From Desulfovibrionaceae bacterium (GTDB taxonomy: Bacteria; Desulfobacterota; Desulfovibrionia; Desulfovibrionales; Desulfovibrionaceae): a stretch of DNA of 36,069 nucleotides. The first letter of the stretch is position 1, and every line of letters begins with the position of its first letter. Positions 8,597 to 21,049 of the stretch are shown here, in pieces. Under the pieces are notes generated by a model. The model was given only the letters and a program-made list of their open reading frames with translations. It was not told the DNA's origin and did not search any database. Location of the stretch: assembly GCA_031082225.1 (NCBI GenBank), contig JAVHLG010000038.1:1-36069 (forward strand), given 5' to 3'. Both the position numbers and the translations under genes were made by a program.

Positions 8597-9562
8597 CTAC
8601 CTATCTCCCATGGGTCGCCGGGGGCTTCCCCCCTCCCCTTTCACATGCTTCGCCAAAAACCCGCCGATCTCCTGCATGGCCGCCGTGGCCTCGGGGAAGA
8701 TGGGGGCGCAGGCCGGATAGCAATGGCACAACCCCTCGCCCACCCGAAGCGTCACGTCCACGCCGCTGGCCGCGGCTTTTTGGGCGAACCGTACGGCGTC
8801 GTCGCGTAGCGTCTCTGCCCCGCCAGCGAAGAGGAGCATGGGCGGAAGCCCTGTGAGGTCGCCGCAAAGCGGAGAGAGGTACGGATCGGAGAAATCGCGG
8901 CCCCGGGCGTAGTGATTGCGGCAGGCCAGCCAGGAGCCCGGCGGGGCCAGGCAGGTTTTGGCGTTGGTGGTCAGGGATTCGCCGGAACAGGTCAGATCGG
9001 TAAAAGGCGACAGGGCCACGGCCGCGGCCGGGAGCGGCAATCCCCGGTCCCGCCCGGCCAGAAGCGCGGCCAGAAGGAGCCCCCCGCCTGCCGAGTCCCC
9101 GGCGAAGGCGATGCGCCAGGCCGGGATGCCTTGGCCAAGAAGCCAGGCATAGGCGGCCAGGGCGTCGTCCAGGGCGGCCGGGTAGGGGTTTTCCGGGGCC
9201 AGCCGGTAGCCGAAGAGCAGGGCCGGGATGCCGGACGCCTTGACGAATTTGGCCACGATGCCCCGGTGCTGCTCCACCGTGCCCATGACGTAACCGCCTC
9301 CGTGGAAATAGAGAATGGCCGCATCCAGGACGCCTTCCCCGGCGGGTTTGATCCATTCGGCAGGGATGCCCGGCACATCTGCCGACACGGCCTCAATCCC
9401 ACTGGGAACCCTGCCCAGGAGCCTTGCGGCCTTGGCGGCGCTTTCGCGCACCGTCGGCAGTTGGGTCTCCCAGTCGGCCTGGGTATCGGGTTTCAGGTGA
9501 AACCTGAGCAGATGCCGGTGATGCAGGATGAATAAAAAAAGGCGGCAACGAAGACTGGGCAT
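8597..9562 (-). CDS. Alpha/beta-hydrolase, hormone-sensitive-lipase type esterase
   Basis: A carboxylesterase-like enzyme of 321 residues. The oxyanion-hole motif HGGG is at residues 87-90 (ILYFHGGGYVMGT) and the nucleophile S157 is in GDSAGG. Further on, GGAETLRDDAVRF carries the likely catalytic Asp and GLCHCYPACAP the likely His. YRLAPENPYPAALDD is a strong signature of the HSL (alpha/beta-hydrolase fold-3) family. The substrate is unknown. The start at 9562 is chosen because AAAAGGAT sits about 8 nt upstream; an ATG at 9580 has no Shine-Dalgarno, and the longer open frame reads through repeat copy B. Gene-sized gaps with the repeat lie on both sides, so it stands alone. Confidence 0.85.
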   Translation of the reverse strand: MPSLRCRLFLFILHHRHLLRFHLKPDTQADWETQLPTVRESAAKAARLLGRVPSGIEAVSADVPGIPAEWIKPAGEGVLDAAILYFHGGGYVMGTVEQHRGIVAKFVKASGIPALLFGYRLAPENPYPAALDDALAAYAWLLGQGIPAWRIAFAGDSAGGGLLLAALLAGRDRGLPLPAAAVALSPFTDLTCSGESLTTNAKTCLAPPGSWLACRNHYARGRDFSDPYLSPLCGDLTGLPPMLLFAGGAETLRDDAVRFAQKAAASGVDVTLRVGEGLCHCYPACAPIFPEATAAMQEIGGFLAKHVKGEGGSPRRPMGDR

Positions 9563-11609: not shown

Positions 11610-11968
11610 CTGATCCTCCGTGACCGCACGGCATGTGGTTCCGCGCCGGTCAAGGCCCCTATATCCCATGCGCCCCAAAGGGCAAAGCCCCTGTTTCGGC
11701 CTCTGTTTCGGCCCGGTTTCAGGGCGGCGCGGCGAACCGACCCAGCCCGTGGCCCGTCCGCCCGTCTGCCCATCCGCCCGTGTGCCCGTCTGCCCGTCTG
11801 CCCGTCTGACCGTTTGCCCATCTGCCCGGCAGCCTGACGACGCCGTCCCCCGGCGCGGGGCCATGAACGCAGCGCCCTGCCCTCGCCCCGCCTTGGCCCT
11901 GTCCCGGATGACAATTCCCGGCTTCGGCGTTATGAAATCTCGGAAATACGGACGAAAAGAGGCCTGCG
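11610..11968. other. Divergent gap between the LysM gene and metX
   Basis: A 359-bp intergenic region between divergent genes, so it should hold promoters for both. It contains the 8-bp tandem repeat (11753-11828). I could not assign -35/-10 pairs, and no riboswitch signature is visible upstream of metX. Confidence 0.4.
11753..11828. repeat. Tandem 8-bp repeat, roughly nine units
   Basis: Degenerate tandem copies of GCCCGTCT (variants GCCCGTCC, GCCCATCC, GCCCGTGT, GACCGTTT, GCCCATCT) run without spacers. The unit length is not a multiple of 3, so copy changes would shift any frame reading through it. It lies between divergent genes and could affect promoter spacing. Confidence 0.8.
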
Positions 11969-13168
11969 GTGAGCGAATACGTGGACCAAGACTCCCCCGG
12001 CGGCTCCGTGGGACTGGTGGAGAAGAAGTTCTTCACCTTCGCCGCCCCGCCCCATCCCCTGATCGTGGAATCCGGCCTGTCCATCGGTCCGGTGACCCTG
12101 GCCTATGAGACCTACGGCGCGCTCTCGCCGCAAAAAGACAACGCGGTCCTGGTGCTGCACGCCCTAACCGGCGACTCCCACGCCGCCGGATACTACGACG
12201 CCTCCGACCCCAAGCCCGGCTGGTGGGACAGCATGATCGGCCCGGGCAAGGGCATCGACACTGGCGCCCTGTTCGTCATCTGCGCCAATGTGCTCGGCGG
12301 CTGCATGGGCTCGACAGGCCCGGCCTCGATCAATCCGGCCACGGGCGCGCCTTACGGCCTGGAATTTCCCGTGGTGACCATCGGCGACATGGTCGCGGCC
12401 CAAAAGGCCCTGGTGGACCACCTGGGCATCCCCGGGCTTCTGGCCGTGGTGGGCGGCTCCATGGGCGGCATGCAAGTTCTGGAATGGTCCGTGCGCTATC
12501 CGGACATGGTGCGCGGGGCCGTGTCCCTGGCCTCCACCACCAAGCATTCGGCCCTGGCCATCGCCTTTAACGAGGTGGCCCGGCAGGCCATCATGGCCGA
12601 CCCCAACTGGCGCAATGGCGACTATTACAGCCACCCCGAAAAGCCGGACACGGGCCTGGCCGTGGCCCGCATGATCGGGCACATCACGTATCTCTCCGAC
12701 GAGGCCATGCGGGCCAAGTTCGACCGCAGGCTGCAAAACCGCTGCGACATCTCTTTCAACTTCGAGGCGGATTTCCAGGTGGAGAGCTACCTGCGCCACC
12801 AGGGCAAAAAATTCGTGGACCGCTTCGACGCCAACTCCTTCCTCTACGTGACCAAGGCCGCCGACTACTTCAACCTGGAAAACGCCCACGGAGGCGGCTC
12901 GGCCGTGTCGGCCTTCGCCAAGGCGAAATGCGCCTACCTGGTGGTGTCGTTCACCTCGGACTGGCTCTATCCCACCTACCAGTCCAAGGCCATGGTCCAG
13001 GCCATGAAGAAAAACGGCCTGGACGTGAGCTTCGTGGAGATCAAGGCCGACTGGGGGCACGACGCCTTCTTGCTGCAAAATCCCCGGCTTTCGGCCATCC
13101 TGTCCAGGTTTTTGCAGCGTATGCTCACGGCCGCCCGGGGAGACCCCATGGAAACGGACCGTGCGTAA
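11969..13168 (+). CDS. metX: Homoserine O-acetyltransferase
   Basis: Catalyses acetyl transfer from acetyl-CoA to L-homoserine, the first committed step of methionine synthesis. A 399-residue alpha/beta-hydrolase fold enzyme. The catalytic triad is visible: S164 in VVGGSMGGMQVLEW, D331 in FTSDWLYP and H364 in WGHDAFLL. Other family blocks are VLHALTGDSHAAGY, GCMGSTGPASINP and DRFDANSFLYVTKA. The start is GTG at 11969, with AAAAGAGG upstream. In many proteobacteria metX is followed directly by metW; here an unrelated 722-residue gene lies between them. Some MetX-like enzymes use succinyl-CoA, and sequence alone does not settle the acyl donor. Confidence 0.93.
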   Translation: MSEYVDQDSPGGSVGLVEKKFFTFAAPPHPLIVESGLSIGPVTLAYETYGALSPQKDNAVLVLHALTGDSHAAGYYDASDPKPGWWDSMIGPGKGIDTGALFVICANVLGGCMGSTGPASINPATGAPYGLEFPVVTIGDMVAAQKALVDHLGIPGLLAVVGGSMGGMQVLEWSVRYPDMVRGAVSLASTTKHSALAIAFNEVARQAIMADPNWRNGDYYSHPEKPDTGLAVARMIGHITYLSDEAMRAKFDRRLQNRCDISFNFEADFQVESYLRHQGKKFVDRFDANSFLYVTKAADYFNLENAHGGGSAVSAFAKAKCAYLVVSFTSDWLYPTYQSKAMVQAMKKNGLDVSFVEIKADWGHDAFLLQNPRLSAILSRFLQRMLTAARGDPMETDRA

Positions 13169-13223
13169 ACTGCAGTGTTCCCATTTCATTTCCTGATTTT
13201 CTTTACAAGCGGACACAACGGAG

Positions 13224-13252
13224 TTGACATGCGCACATGCGCGTTCTATTTT
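13224..13252 (+). promoter_or_regulatory. Sigma-70 promoter of the metalloprotease gene
   Basis: TTGACA (13224-13229), a 17-nt spacer, then TATTTT (13247-13252): a perfect -35 and a 4/6 -10 at ideal spacing. The spacer contains the dyad GCGCA-(2 nt)-TGCGC at 13231-13242, a possible operator. The start codon of the downstream gene is 41 nt beyond the -10. Confidence 0.72.
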
Positions 13253-13293
13253 TATGGGTAGTGTAGGAGAATAGAAAACAAAAGGCCAAAAAT

Positions 13294-15462
13294 ATGCGTG
13301 GAACGCCCCTGGCTTTCCTGTTGCTTATGACCTTGGTCTTCTTTCCGGCCATTTCGAATGCGCAAACCGATGAGGAAACCCTCCTTCTCTTCGTCTCCGC
13401 TTTCACAAGCCCAAGGGTCTCCGTAACGAAAACCATCCCCCCGGAAGGCGGATCGATCCGGGCGGGGAAGGTCTTTGTCGCCTTTTTGGCGGGCACGTTC
13501 GGGCAACCCACCCCGGTCACCGTCCGCAGCGCCAAACCAGGCAGGGAATTCGGCCCCCAGCCGGACAGCCATTGCTTCGCCATCGACATCAACGGCGCCT
13601 GTTTCGCGCAACCCGTCACCGTGTCCTTCCCCGGCTACGGCGGCCCGGACCGGGACATTCCCCTGGCACTGTCCCAGTCCGAGACGGATGCCGCAGCCCA
13701 GACCCTGGCGATGCCGCCGACCATCGTCATGGGCGCGGTGCGCGGCGGTACCTTGAGCCTCCAGATCCCCCGCGCGGAATGCGTCCCGGAAACAGGCCGC
13801 AAGGGCTATCCCCGGGAAATGCTCTCCAGCGTCGTCTATCCGGTGCACGGGATGTCACCCCGCACCAGCCAGCATTTCCGGGCCAATGTTCCCCAGGACA
13901 TGCTCGCCGCCTATCCCGGTCTGGATCAACTCCTGCTGACTCATGCGGAAAGTGCCTGGTCCATCCTGACGTCGTTCGACTACACCTTCGACGACGCCAT
14001 ACAGTATCCCGTGAACATCAACGTCGTGCATGGCTTAAGCAACGAACTATGGGGATTGACGAGCATCCCCCTGGGCGGCAAGGGCAGCCAGTACATCGAA
14101 ATAAACGCCGACCACTGCACGCCAGCCAACAGCACCGCCTTGCGGGCCACGATCGGGCATGAATTCTTCCATGTGGTCCAGAACATCTACAACCCGTTCA
14201 CCGCCTACGCCATCAACCACCCCGGACTTTTCGGCGCGACCTTCTTCTGGCTCTCGGAGGCCTCGTCCGTGTGGTTCGAATCATATATGCTGGGCAACCT
14301 GGACTACGTGTCCCCCGTGTTCGCGGCGAACGTCGACAACTATCCGCGCGGCCTGGAAAACTATGTCGTGGCCGACGGCAAGGACGCCCAGAACATGGGC
14401 TACTGGGCCTCGGGATTTGTGCGCTGGTTCGTGGGCCACCGGGGGCGGGACGTGGTCCGCGTGATGTGGGAGAAGGCCCGGGCCCAGACCGAAAGCTATT
14501 CGGACCTGTCCGCCATGATCGCCGCAGACGACTCGCCCGCTGTCATGGCCCAGCGCTGGTCCTCCTTCATGCACGCCTTTCTGAGCCGCAACACCGGCTA
14601 TCCCGGATGGAACTTCCCCAACGGCTCTGACCTGACCCATTTCACGGCGTCCGGGGCGACCCGCACCTTTTCCAACGGCATCTTCCCCTTCTCCGGACAA
14701 AAATGGCTGTTCGCCGCCAACAACGGGGAACACGACGTCTCGTACACCCTCACCTCGCTGGACAACGAACCGGGACTTTCCTACCACGTCTACACCGGCT
14801 CCACCTCCACGGGCCCCTTCGCCTACCTGACGACGCTGCAGCTCGTGAAGCCGCAGAGCGTCACCCTGTCGCACGGCAAGGCCCTGCTGGTGACCGCCGT
14901 CAACGCCAGCACGGACTATCCCTACAAGACCGCGACGACTGGCAGGGTGGCCATAAACCTCAGCGGACAGAGCCGCTACTGCCCCGGCGTCCCGAACACG
15001 GCCGTCAAGCACGACACCCACGACGGAAAGGTCTATTTCTTTCATCCGACACAGGGGTTCGAGATCGCCCTGGAAGTGTACGCCGACTCCGGAAGCTCTC
15101 CCAACTACAAGATCCTCGACTACGTGGTCTGCAGCGAAGCGACCACAGGCGCAGGCATCTTTCAATCCGCTTACTACAATACAGGTGTTCTCAAGGCCTA
15201 TGTACCCCTCGATGCCGCCAAGAAGGCGCATGGCGTGTCGACGAGCTATTACGAAGACAGTAAATACAGGTCTACATATACTTTTTCGCACAATATTCTG
15301 AATGGCCCCTGCAAGGAATGGTACGCCAACGGAAACGTCTCGTTGATCTGCGAGTATACGAACGATATCAGGACCGGCGCCTGGCGGTGGTACAACGAGG
15401 ACGGCAGCCTGCGGTTGACCTGCCTCTACACGGGAGGAGAGACGCAGTGCTTTTATCCCTAG
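13294..15462 (+). CDS. Exported gluzincin-like metalloprotease with C-terminal MORN-like tail
   Basis: Not recognised as a named family. 722 residues with a clean signal peptide (MRGTPLAFLLLMTLVFFPAI, then SNA-Q). A zinc-protease core lies mid-protein: HEFFH at residues 289-293 (GHEFFHVVQN), then WLSEASSVWFE with E322 or E329 as the likely third ligand. The HExxH plus downstream Glu spacing of about 30-36 residues is the gluzincin pattern. The N-terminal ~180 residues and the beta-rich region at about 430-640 are unassigned. The last ~50 residues carry two MORN_2/YwqK-like units (GPCKEWYANGNVSLICEY and GAWRWYNEDGSLRLTC). The gene has its own promoter, and its flanks are AT-richer than the surrounding genome. 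It splits metX from metW, which suggests insertion by horizontal transfer. It is likely a secreted or surface protease; its substrate is unknown. Confidence 0.75.
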   Translation: MRGTPLAFLLLMTLVFFPAISNAQTDEETLLLFVSAFTSPRVSVTKTIPPEGGSIRAGKVFVAFLAGTFGQPTPVTVRSAKPGREFGPQPDSHCFAIDINGACFAQPVTVSFPGYGGPDRDIPLALSQSETDAAAQTLAMPPTIVMGAVRGGTLSLQIPRAECVPETGRKGYPREMLSSVVYPVHGMSPRTSQHFRANVPQDMLAAYPGLDQLLLTHAESAWSILTSFDYTFDDAIQYPVNINVVHGLSNELWGLTSIPLGGKGSQYIEINADHCTPANSTALRATIGHEFFHVVQNIYNPFTAYAINHPGLFGATFFWLSEASSVWFESYMLGNLDYVSPVFAANVDNYPRGLENYVVADGKDAQNMGYWASGFVRWFVGHRGRDVVRVMWEKARAQTESYSDLSAMIAADDSPAVMAQRWSSFMHAFLSRNTGYPGWNFPNGSDLTHFTASGATRTFSNGIFPFSGQKWLFAANNGEHDVSYTLTSLDNEPGLSYHVYTGSTSTGPFAYLTTLQLVKPQSVTLSHGKALLVTAVNASTDYPYKTATTGRVAINLSGQSRYCPGVPNTAVKHDTHDGKVYFFHPTQGFEIALEVYADSGSSPNYKILDYVVCSEATTGAGIFQSAYYNTGVLKAYVPLDAAKKAHGVSTSYYEDSKYRSTYTFSHNILNGPCKEWYANGNVSLICEYTNDIRTGAWRWYNEDGSLRLTCLYTGGETQCFYP

Positions 15463-16015
15463 TGTTCTGATTCGCGAATATCTATGCGCTACTTTGCGCC
15501 GAGTGTTATACCGCGACACGTCAGATGGCGAATATCCGCGACGTGAAACGCTTTTTTACGCAACGACACGCTCGTGTAATGCTCCACAAACAAGCATATA
15601 CTTCTTTTGGCCGAAAGCAGTGTTTTTAAGCCATTCTTTGGTAACCATGACCGCAACATGATACCTGGCTATTTGCACAACGCGACACGAGACGGCATGG
15701 CCGCTTTCGTGCCGCAGCCCCTGCGCCGGGCGATGGCCATCCCGCATGGGACGCCAGGCCTGCAGGGGACAGGCAGGCGCATGCCCGACCAACGCGGGTC
15801 GCACGCGGCCTGTGGGCCCCCCCGCCTACCCGCGTTCCCGTGCCCCCGGGATGCCCACACCTTGTCATTTTTCGCCGGGCCTCGTATCCTTGCCGGTGCT
15901 TGAGCCCGACGAAATCCGACGGGGTCGCCTTCAATCCCGCAGGCGCGCACGGCTGACATGCCCGGGGCGTGCCCCCGCGACGCCGCGCAACTGCCTGCTC
16001 CAGGCCACGGGGAAC
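15463..16015. other. 553-bp gap between metalloprotease and metW
   Basis: The first ~220 bp (15463-15680) is visibly AT-richer than the chromosome around it, then GC content returns to normal. Direct repeats of GCGAATATC occur near 15474 and 15528. A loose stem CACGTC/GACGTG near 15517-15545 followed by a run of six T residues could act as a weak terminator for the metalloprotease. The frame of metW stays open back to 15746, but that part is not protein-like. I saw no SAM riboswitch signature. Confidence 0.4.
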
Positions 16016-16630
16016 ATGCGCTACGACCTGCAGATCATCGCCTCATGGATCACCCCCGGCGCCAGGGTGCTGGATCTCGGCTGCGGCGCGGGGGATCTGC
16101 TGTCGCACCTCATCCGGGAAAAGGGCATCGCCGGATCAGGCATCGAGATCGACGAGGCCAAGGTGGCCGAGGGGCTCACGCGCGGGTTGTCCGTGGTGCA
16201 CGGCGACATCAACGAAGAGGTGCGCGACTATCCGGATCAGGCCTTTGACGACGTGATCTTGAGCCAGACCCTGCAGCAGGTCTACGATCCGGCCCGGCTC
16301 ATCCGGGAGATGCTGCGCGTGGGCAGGCGCGGCATCGTGAGCTTTCCCAACTTCGCCCACTACGGCGTCCGGGCCCAGCTATTTTTTCGCGGCCAGGCCC
16401 CGGTCTCCCGGGAACTGCCCTACCAGTGGCACGACACCCCCAACATCCGGGTCATCGCCATCAAGGATTTCCGACGCTTCTGCAAGGCCTCGGGGTTCAC
16501 CATCCTGCGCGAGACGGCCATACGCACCCCGCACCACCAGGAGACCGGCCGGGTGAGCGCCTTTTTGCCCAACCTCCTGGCCACCTACGGCATTTTTCTG
16601 CTGGGCAGGACCGCCCCGCCGCATCCCTGA
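16016..16630 (+). CDS. metW: Methionine biosynthesis protein MetW (class I methyltransferase fold)
   Basis: 204 residues with a class I SAM-binding fold: motif I VLDLGCGAGDLL at about residues 18-29, the acidic end of beta-2 in GSGIEIDE, and DVILSQTLQQVYDP for motif IV. The start MRYDLQIIASWI is the family's typical N-terminus, and the ATG follows GGGGAA at short spacing. MetW partners MetX in methionine synthesis and is needed for full homoserine acyltransferase activity in some bacteria (family knowledge). The usual metXW pair is broken here by the metalloprotease gene, so metW probably relies on its own promoter or on long readthrough. Confidence 0.9.
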   Translation: MRYDLQIIASWITPGARVLDLGCGAGDLLSHLIREKGIAGSGIEIDEAKVAEGLTRGLSVVHGDINEEVRDYPDQAFDDVILSQTLQQVYDPARLIREMLRVGRRGIVSFPNFAHYGVRAQLFFRGQAPVSRELPYQWHDTPNIRVIAIKDFRRFCKASGFTILRETAIRTPHHQETGRVSAFLPNLLATYGIFLLGRTAPPHP

Positions 16631-16800
16631 ACCCGCCCCCCCCGGCGGCGGTCTCCCGGCGGCCAGGCATGGCGACAGCCGCCCAGGCCTGCCGGCCCGG
16701 CATGGCGATCCGGCATGGTTGCCCGGGGTGAGGCAATGATTTAGATTCCACCCGTATCCGTGTCCGTTGACGCGTCACCTCGTCCTTTTCCGGAGCCTCC

Positions 16801-17775
16801 ATGCCCCATGCCCCTGATCGTTCCCGTCCAACCTCCGCCGTCCTGGCGGTCATGGCCGCATGGCTCCTGGCGGTCCTCGCCTGGGGCTGCTCCATGCACG
16901 CCACGCCAAAGGCGGATCCGGCCGAGGCCGACACCCTGGCCATGGCCGGGCAGCTCTATGCCGACAGACGCTACCAGGAGGCCCTGACCGGCTACGACGT
17001 CGTTCTGGCCCGCGACCCGACCTCCGCCAAGGCCCTGCTCGGCCGGGGCGTGACCCTGTACAAGCTTGGCCGCTACGAGGAATCCATCGCGACCCTGACC
17101 GTGCTCCTGGGCCGGGACAAAACCCATGCCTCGGCCTACTACAACCGGGGACTGGCCAAGGCCCGGCTGGAAAAATACCGCGAGGCCGCCGCCGACTTCG
17201 AGATCACCCTGGCCCTTCGGCCCGATTTCTCCCAGGCCGAAAACAATCTGGGGCTGGTCTATTTCTCCATGGACGAAACCGACAACGCCCTGGTCCATTT
17301 CGACCGGGCCGCCTCCCTCATGGGCGACGCCCCCTTCGAGCCGCTTTTCAACAAAGCGGCCGTGCTCCAGGCCCGCCAGGAATATGAAAAGGCCCTGCCC
17401 ATCTACGACTATCTGGTGACCATGCGGCCAAACGACGTGAACTCCCTCAACAATCGCGGCTACATCCGGCTCATGCGCGGCGAGGACGCCGAGGCCGTGG
17501 CCGACTTTTCCCGGGCCTTGGCCGTGGCCGAGGACAAGGAGATCCTGTTTAACAGGGCCATTGCCCTGAACCGCCTGGGACGCAGCCAGGAGGCCCTGGC
17601 CGACTACCGCCGGGCGGTGACCGTGGATCCGAAATTCGTCAAGGGATGGAAAAACATGGGATTTTTGCGCCTGCGTCTGGAGGACAAGGCGGGATGCGCG
17701 GACCTGGAGCGGGCCTGCGAGATGGGATCGTGCGCGGCCATTGAGGACCTGCGCCGCCAGGGAACCTGCCCCTGA
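16801..17775 (+). CDS. TPR-repeat lipoprotein
   Basis: 324 residues. An N-terminal hydrophobic stretch (VLAVMAAWLLAVLAWGC) ends in a lipobox-like LAWGC, so it is probably an outer- or inner-membrane lipoprotein facing the periplasm. After it, about seven tetratricopeptide units span residues ~45-310. Examples are AGQLYADRRYQEALTGYDVV, GRGVTLYKLGRYEESIATL, YYNRGLAKARLEKYREAAAD and ENNLGLVYFSMDETDNAL. TPR arrays form protein-protein docking surfaces. The ATG at 16801 has CCGGAG upstream. It is convergent with gspN with only 3 bp between the stop codons. Such proteins can act as pilotins or assembly helpers for secretion systems, but nothing here proves that. Confidence 0.8.
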   Translation: MPHAPDRSRPTSAVLAVMAAWLLAVLAWGCSMHATPKADPAEADTLAMAGQLYADRRYQEALTGYDVVLARDPTSAKALLGRGVTLYKLGRYEESIATLTVLLGRDKTHASAYYNRGLAKARLEKYREAAADFEITLALRPDFSQAENNLGLVYFSMDETDNALVHFDRAASLMGDAPFEPLFNKAAVLQARQEYEKALPIYDYLVTMRPNDVNSLNNRGYIRLMRGEDAEAVADFSRALAVAEDKEILFNRAIALNRLGRSQEALADYRRAVTVDPKFVKGWKNMGFLRLRLEDKAGCADLERACEMGSCAAIEDLRRQGTCP

Positions 17776-17784
17776 CGGTCAGGG
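17770..17784. terminator. Stop-codon-spanning dyad shared by convergent genes
   Basis: CCCTGA-(3 nt)-TCAGGG is a perfect 6-bp dyad whose arms contain the stop codon of the TPR gene (plus) and of gspN (minus). Neither side has a T-run, so it may protect transcript ends rather than stop polymerase. Confidence 0.35.
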
Positions 17785-18828
17785 CGTTTCGGGGCGGGCC
17801 GGGGACGCCTCGCCGTCGGCCGGAGGGTTCCCGTTTCCGGCCTCCGTCCCCGTCGTCTCCTCCCAGGTCAGCACCGGACCGGCCAGGGTTCCCGACAGGC
17901 GCATCCCGGCCGGACGGGACGCCGTCACCTCGGCCTGGACCTCGTCGGCAAGGGTGCCTGAAAAGTCCAGTCGGCTGGCCCGGATATCCCCGTCCGGCGT
18001 GATCCGCCCGGTCAGGACCCCGCGCAACATGTCCGAGGCCACGGTACATTCCGAAACCTCCAGCCTGCCCTCCCGGACCTCGGCCCGGACCGCCATCCGG
18101 CCCAGTTCCACGCGCACGGGCCGCAGCATCTCCCCCTCGACCTCCACAAAGGCCTCCTCGAACAAAAGGCCCGCCGTGCCCGCCCTGGCCTTGCCAGGGG
18201 CAAACTGCACCTCGCCGGAAACGCGCCCTCCCGCATGCCGGTTCAAAAGCCAGGGCAACCCCGGCGAGCGGCCGAGATCAAGCCCGCGAACCGTGACCCC
18301 CACCTCCCGCCAGCCGCCCCCGAACAGGGAATCCGAGACCGCCGCAACCGTCAGTTCGCCGCCGAGGGTGCGGCCGACGGCGGACACCTCCAGCCGCCCC
18401 AGACAGGCCGCCAAAAGGGAAAGATGCAGCCGGGCCTCAGGCATGTCCGCCAGGGGTTCCGAAGCGCCCTCCAGGCGCAGCCGCAGCCCGCTCAAAACGG
18501 CCCCTGGCGGAAAAAGCGCAGCCCTGGCCTCGCGCACCGAGAGGCTCAGGCCGTGTCCCGGGGACAGGGTGCGCTCCAGCCACAGACGCAGCCGCTCGTC
18601 GGGAAACTTGGCGGCCAGCATGAAAAGGGACAGGCACAGGACAAACGCCGCCAGGATCGCGGCCCCGGCCGCCAGGGCGATCCTGGCCGGACGCTCCCGG
18701 GCGTTGCGGACGGCGGTCGGCGTGGCGTTTTGCACAACGGAAGGCGGGCCGCCCGCCGGGGCGCTGGCCCCAGGGGCTTGCCCAAGACGGCGCCGCAACC
18801 GGGCGAAGAGAGCCCTGGCCGCGTTCAT
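17779..18828 (-). CDS. gspN: Type II secretion system protein GspN
   Basis: Last gene of the secretion block, 349 residues. A cytoplasmic N-terminus (~50 residues) is followed by one transmembrane helix (IALAAGAAILAAFVLCLSLFML, about residues 50-71) and a beta-rich periplasmic domain with repeats such as LSGLRLRLEGASEPLADMPEARLHL and ASRLDFSGTLADEVQAEV. This AsmA-like beta layout and the position after gspM fit GspN, an inner-membrane component present in some type II systems. The start overlaps the gspM stop by ATGA. The Pro/Glu/Thr-rich C-terminus is probably disordered. Sequence identity to GspN is by pattern and context, so the call is good but not certain. Confidence 0.8.
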   Translation of the reverse strand: MNAARALFARLRRRLGQAPGASAPAGGPPSVVQNATPTAVRNARERPARIALAAGAAILAAFVLCLSLFMLAAKFPDERLRLWLERTLSPGHGLSLSVREARAALFPPGAVLSGLRLRLEGASEPLADMPEARLHLSLLAACLGRLEVSAVGRTLGGELTVAAVSDSLFGGGWREVGVTVRGLDLGRSPGLPWLLNRHAGGRVSGEVQFAPGKARAGTAGLLFEEAFVEVEGEMLRPVRVELGRMAVRAEVREGRLEVSECTVASDMLRGVLTGRITPDGDIRASRLDFSGTLADEVQAEVTASRPAGMRLSGTLAGPVLTWEETTGTEAGNGNPPADGEASPARPETP

Positions 18829-19400
18829 GAGGCAGGCCCCCGGGCGCTGTCCCGGGCCGAAACCGGTCCGGGCGGAGACGTTTTCTCGGGCGCGGCCTGT
18901 TCCCGGCCCACAGGCACGGCCACGGACACATCCGCGTTGAGTCCCTGGGCAGGGTCGGCCCGAAACGAAAGCTTGCGCACGGTCAGGGCCTCCGGCGCGG
19001 TTTCGATGCGGCCCAGATAGGCGGCCATATCCCCCAGGGCCACCCGCCGCAGCCGCATGTCCACGACCTCCTCGCGCACCCCCTGCCCCCCGTCCCGGGT
19101 GGACGGCCGCATGTATTCGATGTTCCCGGCCACGCCCGTCTCCCGGGCCATGGTCTGGAGCAGGGCGAACAGGTTCACGGCCTCGCCGGACCCGGCCACC
19201 TCGCTCAGGCGCAAGGCCACTTCCTGGCGGCGCTTCTCCAGGGCCCCGGCCTCGGCCAGGGCCTTTTCCGCCCGCTCGATGCGCACCGCGAGTTTCTGCC
19301 TGGTCTCGGCCACGGGGGACAGCACCCAGCTGTCCAGGGCGAAAAGCGCCAGAAGGGCCGCCACGGCGAAAAGGGCCATCCGGCGCATGGATTCGTTCAC
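18825..19400 (-). CDS. gspM: Type II secretion system protein GspM
   Basis: 191 residues: a short N-terminus, a transmembrane helix at about 8-25 (MALFAVAALLALFALDSWVL), and a coiled-coil-like segment (ETRQKLAVRIERAEKALAEAGALEKRRQE). A periplasmic ferredoxin-like domain follows, containing LFALLQTMARETGVAGNIEYM and VRKLSFRAD. GspM is a small inner-membrane platform protein that pairs with GspL. The gene overlaps gspL at its start and gspN at its end, each by 4 nt, indicating tight translational coupling. Confidence 0.85.
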   Translation of the reverse strand: MNESMRRMALFAVAALLALFALDSWVLSPVAETRQKLAVRIERAEKALAEAGALEKRRQEVALRLSEVAGSGEAVNLFALLQTMARETGVAGNIEYMRPSTRDGGQGVREEVVDMRLRRVALGDMAAYLGRIETAPEALTVRKLSFRADPAQGLNADVSVAVPVGREQAAPEKTSPPGPVSARDSARGPAS

Positions 19401-21049
19401 AGGCCCGCCTCCTCGCCGCTTACGGTCATCTCCAGTTCGAATTCCACCCCGCCGCCTGCGGCCTTGGTCGTGGCCCCCTTGATGTCCACGGCTGCAAATC
19501 CCCCCGATTCCAAAAGCTTGGAGCGCACCGACTCCACCGTCTCATAGGTGTCGGCCGTGGCCGTCAGACGCACCCGTCGCCCGTCCACGGTGAATTCCCC
19601 CACCACCACCGGGGAGCCCTCGGGGATGGCCCGGGAGACCGTGCGTAAAAGCTGGGTCATGCCGCCGCCCACGCCCGTGCGCAACCGGGCGGGCCACGCC
19701 GCCTCCAACTCCCGCAACCGGTCCCGCAGCACGCTGACCTGCTGGCTGGGATCCAGCCCCTGGCGCGTGCCCGGGGCGGCCTGTTGCACAAGGGAGGCCA
19801 TCTCCCCTTCCAGGCGGGCCAGCCAGGCCTTTTTGAACCGGATGTCGAAAAAGGCGTCCGCCCCGTAGGCCGCAACGGCCAGAACCGCTCCCAGGGCCAA
19901 AAGGACGGCCCGGCGGGCGTGTCCGGGACGCCCGTCCAGTCCCAGGGCCTCCCGGACAAGAGATCCCCCGGAAGGATCGTCATCAAGGAAATTGAAGCCC
20001 AGGGATCCTGTGCCGCGCAGGGCCAGGCCGCAGGCCACGGCCATGTCCGGGGTCAGGTTGCGGGCCGTGTCCTGGTCCGGAAACAGGAGCCCCCCCAGAT
20101 CCCCGGCAAGGCGCACCTCCCGGCACAATCCGAACCCCGGGCCGCCTTCCGGGCCGTCCGCCAACCGGTCCGCCAACCGCTCCGCCAGACCCGCGGCAAG
20201 CTCCTCTTTTGCCAGGGCGCCGAAAAGGATGACCCGGGCCGGGCCAAATCCCGTCTCCGCCGCCAGGGTCAAAAGAATCTGCCGGTGAAGCTCCATGGCC
20301 CAGTCCCCGCCGCCCGGCTCCAGCCCGGCCAGGGACGCCTGGCGCGCCCGCCGGGGCTGGCCATGCGCCCCAAAGACCATAAGCGCCCGCTCGGCCGCGA
20401 CGTCCACGGCCAGGATCGGCCCGGACCCAGACCCCGGCGGGGCGCGGAAAAGCAGGCTGCGCACCCGGGCAAGCCCTGCTCCGGACGGGGGCGGCCGGTC
20501 CAGGGCGGCCTCCACGGCCAGGGCCGCGCGCCACAGGCCGGTCAGATCCAGGTCCAGAACCTCAGGGTCCAGGGCCGAAAACGCTTCGCGGCGCAGGCTC
20601 ACCTCGCCCTTTGGCATGGCGGCGGCCAGAAAGGCATGACGGCCCGAGCCGCCAGACAGGCCCGTCAGGCCAAAAAACCCCGGCCGCTCCGGACCGTCCG
20701 GCCCCTCTCTCCCGGCCGGGCAGCAGGACACGGCCTGATCGGAAAGGGTTCCGGGCAAAAGGGATTCGAGCTCAAGGCCGAGCACCCGGGAGATCTTTCC
20801 CGGCGAGGAAAAAGGGAAGCTCACCCGCCGCACCATGGCCGGGCCCGAGTCCATGCCCACAACCGCCGCAATGCCCCCAAGTCCACGCGACAACAGCAAG
20901 TCGCTGACCGCACGCCCCTTCGCGGCGGGATCGGCGTCGGCGGAAACCACGCTCCGGGCCATGTCCGCAAAACGGCTGCGGCCAAGGCTGCGCTCGAGAA
21001 CCACGAGCTTTATCTCGTTCCCGGATACGTCGATTCCCGCTATGCGCAT
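19397..21049 (-). CDS. gspL: Type II secretion system protein GspL
   Basis: 550 residues. The N-terminal ~340 residues form an actin-like/PilM-type cytoplasmic domain beginning MRIAGIDVSGNEIKLVVLER, which in the family binds the GspE ATPase. A transmembrane helix follows (RRAVLLALGAVLAVAAYGADAFF), then a coiled segment and a C-terminal periplasmic ferredoxin-like domain (VVVGEFTVDGRRVRLTATAD). It bridges cytoplasmic motor and periplasmic pseudopilus. The start has AAGGCGGGC upstream. It is separated from gspK by 70 bp, the largest gap inside the block, and overlaps gspM by 4 nt. Confidence 0.88.
   Translation of the reverse strand: MRIAGIDVSGNEIKLVVLERSLGRSRFADMARSVVSADADPAAKGRAVSDLLLSRGLGGIAAVVGMDSGPAMVRRVSFPFSSPGKISRVLGLELESLLPGTLSDQAVSCCPAGREGPDGPERPGFFGLTGLSGGSGRHAFLAAAMPKGEVSLRREAFSALDPEVLDLDLTGLWRAALAVEAALDRPPPSGAGLARVRSLLFRAPPGSGSGPILAVDVAAERALMVFGAHGQPRRARQASLAGLEPGGGDWAMELHRQILLTLAAETGFGPARVILFGALAKEELAAGLAERLADRLADGPEGGPGFGLCREVRLAGDLGGLLFPDQDTARNLTPDMAVACGLALRGTGSLGFNFLDDDPSGGSLVREALGLDGRPGHARRAVLLALGAVLAVAAYGADAFFDIRFKKAWLARLEGEMASLVQQAAPGTRQGLDPSQQVSVLRDRLRELEAAWPARLRTGVGGGMTQLLRTVSRAIPEGSPVVVGEFTVDGRRVRLTATADTYETVESVRSKLLESGGFAAVDIKGATTKAAGGGVEFELEMTVSGEEAGL

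What the first reader, a model, noticed from the sequence alone, without database searches (positions are those of the whole stretch)
13224..15462. Secreted gluzincin-like protease with MORN-like tail inserted between metX and metW
The usual metX-metW pair is split by a 722-residue exported protein with HEFFH, a downstream WLSE glutamate motif and a C-terminal YwqK/MORN_2-like repeat. The combination of zinc protease and MORN-like tail is one I do not recognise. The gene has its own TTGACA-N17-TATTTT promoter and AT-richer flanks, which fits acquisition by transfer. A MORN-like tail could bind a membrane or a partner or immunity protein. The gene context and motifs are seen directly; the function is inference.
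Basis: partly seen in the sequence, partly recalled or inferred. Interest (0 to 1): 0.7.

Follow-up and report, generated by a model that had tools for sequence, protein, structure and literature searches.

The report
Inserted secreted protease gene, multicopy family
A bacterium carries a stray gene for a predicted exported zinc protease with an unusual repeat tail, wedged into a normally unbroken pair of methionine-synthesis genes; it is one of five very different copies, in this genome, of a rare gene family.

Summary
ORF 13294-15462 (722 aa) lies between metX and metW with HEFFH (289-293), a ligand-type Glu (322), a conserved Tyr (370) and a MORN_2 tail. It is a real insertion: in 29 of 29 other delivered metX loci, two congeners included, metW follows directly; the insert is about 13169-16015. 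The modelled core looks like a gluzincin, first to M30 lugdulysin (Z 15.3), M1 tied; Foldseek alone is weak. The genome holds five copies, 32-42% identical over the core; four are missing from both congeners. The core was found in 8 of 348 held genomes of the order. Best reading: a laterally acquired exported zinc protease whose beta and MORN parts anchor or aim it. Export, activity and target are inferred; two relatives lost the catalytic Glu.

The parts
11969..13168 (+). metX, left flank of the insertion
   Evidence: NF001209 E 2.9e-160; 94% identical to the congener G002
13169..16015 (+). inserted segment, 2847 bp counted from the metX stop to the metW start; exact ends not resolved, because alignment to G002 stops at 13099 inside the variable metX tail
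   Evidence: 11903-13099 and 16016-20660 match neighbouring stretches of G002; metX-metW adjacent in 29 of 29 other loci; length
13224..13252 (+). promoter-like string that overlaps a terminator-like hairpin; role ambiguous
13294..15462 (+). 722-aa predicted exported zinc metalloprotease
13294..13365 (+). Sec-type signal peptide, about residues 1-24
   Evidence: by eye from the sequence; no predictor run
13390..13848 (+). N-terminal region with a conserved GGxxxxG motif; resemblance to ZU5 is recalled, without a Pfam match
   Evidence: conservation; no Pfam hit
13849..14628 (+). gluzincin-like peptidase core, residues 186-445
   Evidence: AlphaFold2 pLDDT 74, pTM 0.81; lugdulysin Z 15.3; NF045524 44.4 bits, below cut-off
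14158..14172 (+). HEFFH, residues 289-293
14257..14259 (+). Glu322, predicted third zinc ligand
   Evidence: invariant in the 9 rows of A2; Asp in one of 15 rows
14401..14403 (+). Tyr370, predicted transition-state residue
   Evidence: invariant in the 9 rows and the 15; compare the Y315F mutant in the title of 7bb9
15298..15363 (+). MORN_2 repeat, residues 669-690; a weaker unit follows, by eye
   Evidence: the A1 profile matches the SET7/9 MORN region, E 3.1e-5
15571..15691 (.). 121-bp dispersed repeat with imperfect terminal inverted repeats (MITE-like)
   Evidence: 23 rows in this genome, itself included, none in 7 relatives; sharp ends in 21 aligned copies; 17 of 22 end bases match
16016..16630 (+). 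metW, right flank; start set by homology to relatives
   Evidence: TIGR02081 E 2.5e-67; alignments to relatives start at 16016-16017

Best explanation
The gene encodes an exported zinc metalloprotease of the gluzincin type. His289, His293 and Glu322 would hold the zinc, Glu290 would activate water and Tyr370 would steady the transition state. The N-terminal region, the region after the core and the MORN_2 tail would hold the enzyme at a surface or bring it to its substrate. The gene reached the metX-metW spot as a lone segment after the split from congener G002, one of several separate arrivals of divergent members of the family. Shown: the insertion, the family, the motif and its conservation. 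Predicted: the fold. Inferred: export, activity, substrate, role of the tail, lateral arrival.
For: Empty site in 29 of 29 other delivered metX loci including both congeners. Core model pTM 0.81; lugdulysin (M30) first at Z 15.3, M1 chains tied, and the 50 rows shown are gluzincins by title, families recalled. E322, W327, E329 and Y370 are invariant in 9 rows that include eight distant relatives; all eight carry the search pattern HEFFHVVQ, none the pattern that spans Y370, so these four were not selected for. The peptidase quarter has the lowest dN of the four quarters in both intact pairs (0.021, C87 against G002; 0.176, C106 against G704) but not in the pair that lost the Glu (0.092; lowest 0.082). 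Patchy: 8 of 348 genomes, 4 of 59 genera. No own copy groups with another own copy with support. C106 and its 68%-identical partner in G704 match over the gene only, within 20-kb stretches.
Against: No assay, and no sequence match above a curated peptidase cut-off. Foldseek alone is weak: best E 0.082, an M1 enzyme, and lugdulysin is not in the 50 rows it shows. The whole-protein model is poor outside the core (mean pLDDT 45.3). Two orthologous relatives read HGLFH and lack the catalytic Glu; another has Asp at the third ligand. In the tandem pair G051_a/G051_b the peptidase quarter is not the most constrained (dN 0.362, lowest 0.312). GC3 of this copy is near that of its neighbours, so transfer is old or came from a similar genome. 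No transfer machinery was seen beside it.
Confidence: 0.68

Rival explanations
1. A surface adhesin or binding protein built on a peptidase scaffold, with catalysis weak or absent; the tail and the other non-catalytic regions do the work.
For: Two orthologous members lost the catalytic Glu yet keep dN/dS about 0.37 (0.110/0.294); weak match of the tail to an adhesin model, LIC20035, 15.9 bits against a cut-off of 250.
Against: HExxH is kept in 13 of 15 core rows; dN is lowest in the peptidase quarter of both intact pairs.
Confidence: 0.17
2. A weapon against other bacteria: a polymorphic secreted protease, its copies diverging under conflict, with the tail held by a partner or immunity protein.
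For: Five divergent copies in one genome, patchy occurrence, zincin toxins described in polymorphic toxin systems (PMC3482391, passages seen), a YwqK domain among putative T6SS effectors (PMC7970981, passages seen).
Against: No recognised delivery domain in Pfam or NCBIfam; no PADLOC match for the 4 copies scanned; no shared small gene stood out in the ORF lists, which was not a systematic search.
Confidence: 0.12
3. Old family of paralogues inherited vertically and lost many times, so that the metX-metW location is ancestral.
For: The paralogues are deeply diverged; one copy (C87) is shared in place with G002.
Against: metX-metW is unbroken in 29 of 29 other delivered loci; 340 of 348 genomes of the order gave no match to the core at E 1e-15 with up to 4 candidates scored each, so many losses would be needed.
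Confidence: 0.12

Closest known systems
MEROPS M30 (hyicolysin family), lugdulysin, PDB 7bb8 and 7bb9
   Same: Top row for the core (Z 15.3, rmsd 4.0, 231 aligned) and for the whole model (Z 16.9); the title of 7bb9 names E242Q and Y315F mutants, which fits an HExxH Glu and a downstream Tyr
   Different: 14% identity; no Pfam M30 match at E up to 1; M1 chains tied within 1 Z; different terminal parts
NCBIfam NF045524, MXAN_6640 family putative metalloprotease
   Same: Matches residues 278-445 at 44.4 bits, and all five own copies
   Different: Below the 140-bit cut-off in 5 of 5
Pfam MORN_2 / YwqK-type proteins
   Same: MORN_2 match in 8 of 10 family members scanned
   Different: Here behind a peptidase core; most other hits of the family profile in the phylum draw match the tail only
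PVC-metallopeptidase of polymorphic toxins (PMC3482391, passages seen)
   Same: HExxHxxQ...E signature
   Different: No such Pfam family at E up to 1; delivery genes not surveyed

Membership tests
Gluzincins (clan MA(E)) | HExxH | tested here: met
   residues 289-293
Gluzincins (clan MA(E)) | Downstream Glu as third zinc ligand | tested here: met
   E322, 28 residues between, invariant in the 9 rows of A2; zinc binding itself not tested
Gluzincins (clan MA(E)) | Fold | tested here: met
   predicted core, Z 13.3-15.3 to M30, M1, M4 and M36 chains; Foldseek E only 0.082
Gluzincins (clan MA(E)) | Proteolytic activity | not testable with these tools
   needs purified protein
MEROPS M30 | Sequence match to the Pfam M30 model (PF10460, accession recalled) | tested here: not met
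   not among the matches at E up to 1
MEROPS M30 | Fold nearer to M30 than to other gluzincins | tested here: inconclusive
   15.3 against 14.6 for M1, tied
NF045524 MXAN_6640 family | Score above the curated cut-off | tested here: not met
   44.4 of 140 bits; 0 of 5 own copies over it
MORN_2 repeat proteins | MORN_2 repeat above the gathering score | tested here: met
   35.4 against 29.6 bits
PVC-metallopeptidase (polymorphic toxins) | Family model match and PVC-type gene neighbours | tested here: inconclusive
   no such Pfam match; neighbours not surveyed for PVC genes

The most novel reading that the evidence does not exclude
A family of polymorphic exported proteases that enters genomes one gene at a time, each arrival joining the chromosome together with a piece of the neighbouring gene and so leaving long direct repeats around the newcomer, with divergent copies piling up in a single genome because each acts on a different target or rival.
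Probability: 0.15. Interest if true: 0.65.

Novelty: new variant of a known kind. Interest (0 to 1): 0.42.

Why it matters
A predicted gluzincin with a MORN_2 tail has no model of its own in the libraries searched here. A five-copy genome beside congeners with one copy and none is a clean system to ask how single genes enter chromosomes without visible mobile machinery, and what a repeat tail does for an exported protease. The catalytic-Glu losses offer natural variants to compare.

Tried and rejected
Plasmid, phage and IMG/VR searches gave no relative. PADLOC (4 copies) and PHROGs (this protein) gave no family. No tRNA, and no Rfam family at gathering score, in the window. Direct repeats around the window copy were sought with BLAST and with local alignment against 30 shuffles: none; the same holds for L035, L037, L039, L041 and L136. 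L134 and L135 gave short direct matches (40 and 25 bp), L135 also a score slightly over its shuffles (42 against 36), and L043 inverted matches only. The 121-bp element was not found in L035, L037 and L038 nor in the part of the L036 insert left of its gene. A common RNA structure for that element shows no clear covariation. ZU5 membership of the N-terminal region is recalled resemblance, with no Pfam or PDB-sequence support. PDB sequence searches found no metallopeptidase; the significant hits were SET7/9 MORN chains with the family profile. Sub-threshold Pfam hits in A1 included SprT-like (3 of 10 members, best E 0.018) and DUF5700, a putative zinc peptidase (1 of 10, E 0.003). Families absent from the VIA rows are not thereby excluded. 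Paper searches for MXAN_6640 (0 papers), Desulfovibrio + MORN + peptidase (0 papers) and MORN with metalloprotease or metallopeptidase terms (listings of 15 of 280 and 10 of 53) showed no account of this protein in what was listed; most subscription papers are not held.

Counts per genome are lower bounds where only 2-4 candidates were scored; the own genome shows 4 of its 5 copies. The order and class searches covered the same 348 genomes. Of the matches (11 of 119; 36 of 395; 13 of 288), many are to the MORN tail only; core matches are 7 of the 13. The own genome is counted in these tallies. The direct-repeat null uses random segments, not random insertions, and some loci share descent (L038 with L042; L039 with L041), so the binomial figure (4 of 13, P about 1.6e-5) is only a guide.

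Full report
What is there. The ORF at 13294-15462 encodes 722 residues and stands between metX (11969-13168) and metW (16016-16630), all on the + strand. HEFFH is at 289-293, WLSE at 319-322 and GYWASGF starts at 369. Pfam finds one family above its cut-off, MORN_2 at 669-690 (E 6.6e-9); NCBIfam gives a sub-threshold match of residues 278-445 to the MXAN_6640 putative metalloprotease family (44.4 of 140 bits). The signal peptide is judged by eye.

It is an insertion. Of 59 genomes searched with MetX (own included), 33 matched at E 1e-80; 30 loci were delivered, one of them the window's, and three matched genomes were not delivered. In all 29 other delivered loci metW follows metX, the gap between the two matches being -7 to 334 bp. 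In the congener G002 (MetX 94% identical) one alignment ends at 13099 in the variable metX tail and the next starts at 16016, 94 bp apart in G002. Counted from the metX stop to the metW start the insert is 13169-16015, 2847 bp, 60% GC.

It is one of five. The genome holds four more copies, 33-34% identical over the matched lengths; the five are 32-42% identical to each other over the core. In the order, 8 of 348 held genomes match the core at E 1e-15, in 4 of 59 genera (one search covered the same genomes). In a draw of 395 genomes of the phylum 36 matched the full profile at E 1e-10; in the listed rows only four of them match the core (G000, G002, G139, G292), the others the tail. G139 has the same order of parts (MORN_2 above cut-off; Peptidase_MA_2 at E 7.3e-5 but 23.1 of 32.4 bits); G292 has the core behind a beta-propeller. 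G084 has the core followed by other modules (by eye). In a 15-row tree no copy of this genome groups with another copy of this genome with support; C87 pairs with G002 (89%), C106 with G704 of another genus (68%), and the window copy weakly with G011_C29 (37%, support 87/83). Four of the five copies are missing from both congeners: G002 has one match, which is C87 in place, and G001 none. C106 lies beyond a tRNA-Ser gene and next to a subtilase gene, C73 beyond a molybdopterin-type oxidoreductase (name by eye), C57 where two stretches that are far apart in G002 meet. The C106 and G704 loci match over the gene only, within 20-kb stretches.

The core. AlphaFold2 on residues 186-445 with eight distant relatives gives pLDDT 74 and pTM 0.81. 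VIA-align ranks M30 lugdulysin first (Z 15.3, rmsd 4.0, 231 aligned), tied with M1 aminopeptidases (14.6); the 50 rows shown are gluzincins by their titles, family names recalled. Foldseek alone is weak: best E 0.082, an M1 enzyme, none at 0.001, and lugdulysin is not in its 50 rows. The whole-protein model is good only in the core (mean pLDDT 45.3). HEFFHVVQ was the pattern shared by all eight relatives, so its conservation there is not independent. Another search pattern, DAQNMGYW, spans Y370, but none of the eight carries it (by eye); E322, W327, E329 and Y370 are invariant in all 9 rows without having been selected for. In 15 core rows HExxH is kept in 13; an orthologous pair in G011 and G051 reads HGLFH, and G011_C29 has Asp for Glu322.

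Constraint. By a simple counting method dN and dS are 0.077 and 0.319 for C87 against G002, and 0.252 and 0.728 for C106 against G704; in both the peptidase quarter has the lowest dN (0.021 and 0.176; dS 0.173 and 0.625). The HGLFH pair has 0.110 and 0.294 overall and 0.092 and 0.207 in that quarter, which is not its lowest. The tandem pair of G051, one intact and one HGLFH, has 0.362 there, also not its lowest. This fits selection on catalysis in intact copies and continued use of the others for something else, but rests on few pairs without a significance test.

How copies arrive. Direct repeats of 50 bp or more bracket 5 of 14 family loci: C73 (126 bp, 92%, around the 3' end of the neighbour), C87 (402 bp, 93.5%, a glyA-like 5' end with a ZTP riboswitch; glyA by eye, riboswitch) and its G002 ortholog (102 bp, 82%), G011_C29 (58 bp, 84%, the 3' end of the neighbour) and G139 (588 bp, 86%). 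Nine loci, the window's among them, have none. Controls: 0 of 123 random segments, and 50 of 4000 from three repeat pairs in 400 kb. A survey of small variable segments found repeats at 10-18% of them in four alignments (E. coli, E. coli B2, S. aureus, S. pyogenes), 66-94% of the repeats being under 30 bp (PMC2884548, passages seen); bracketing repeats as such are thus not rare, but long ones are. Homology-facilitated illegitimate recombination, named in that paper, or the merodiploid route of natural transformation (PMC3784515, abstract seen) could leave such brackets; this is inference.

The spacer before metW carries a 121-bp element (15571-15691). The search gave 23 rows in this genome, itself included, with 40 of 87 candidates scored, and none in seven relatives, where 39 or 40 candidates each were scored. 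I fetched 20 of the 22 others. The 21 aligned copies share sharp ends in unrelated surroundings; mean pairwise identity is 78%, and 17 of 22 end bases match as inverted repeats. It looks like a MITE. It was not found in three paralogue loci or in the checked part of the fourth, so it is probably an independent arrival.

Verdict. The gene is best read as a laterally acquired, exported zinc protease of gluzincin type from a rare family with several copies in some genomes. Export, substrate and the tail's role stay inferred.

Noticed in passing
window 15571-15691: A 121-bp dispersed element with imperfect terminal inverted repeats; 23 rows in this genome and none in seven relatives at E up to 1e-3.
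   Followed up: partly
L036 7495-7620 and 11402-11526; L038 8207-8608 and 11474-11875; L040 8289-8346 and 10981-11038; L137 7600-8182 and 11345-11923: Long direct repeats of neighbouring DNA bracket family copies.
   Followed up: partly
L036 about 8770-8850: In the C73 copy the signal-peptide part and the body lie in different frames across a run of T: broken gene, sequencing error or slippage. Its GC3 is 0.43, far below 0.88 for metX.
   Followed up: no
L038 8475-8557 and 11742-11824: Two ZMP/ZTP riboswitches on the same strand, one on each side of the family gene; both lie in the duplicated stretch.
   Followed up: no
L036 7848-8050: Two short repeats with many copies in both congeners, unlike the window element.
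   Followed up: no
window 11752-11828: Tandem array, period 8, 9.6 copies, at the upstream end of a LysM-like ORF on the - strand (LysM by eye).
   Followed up: no
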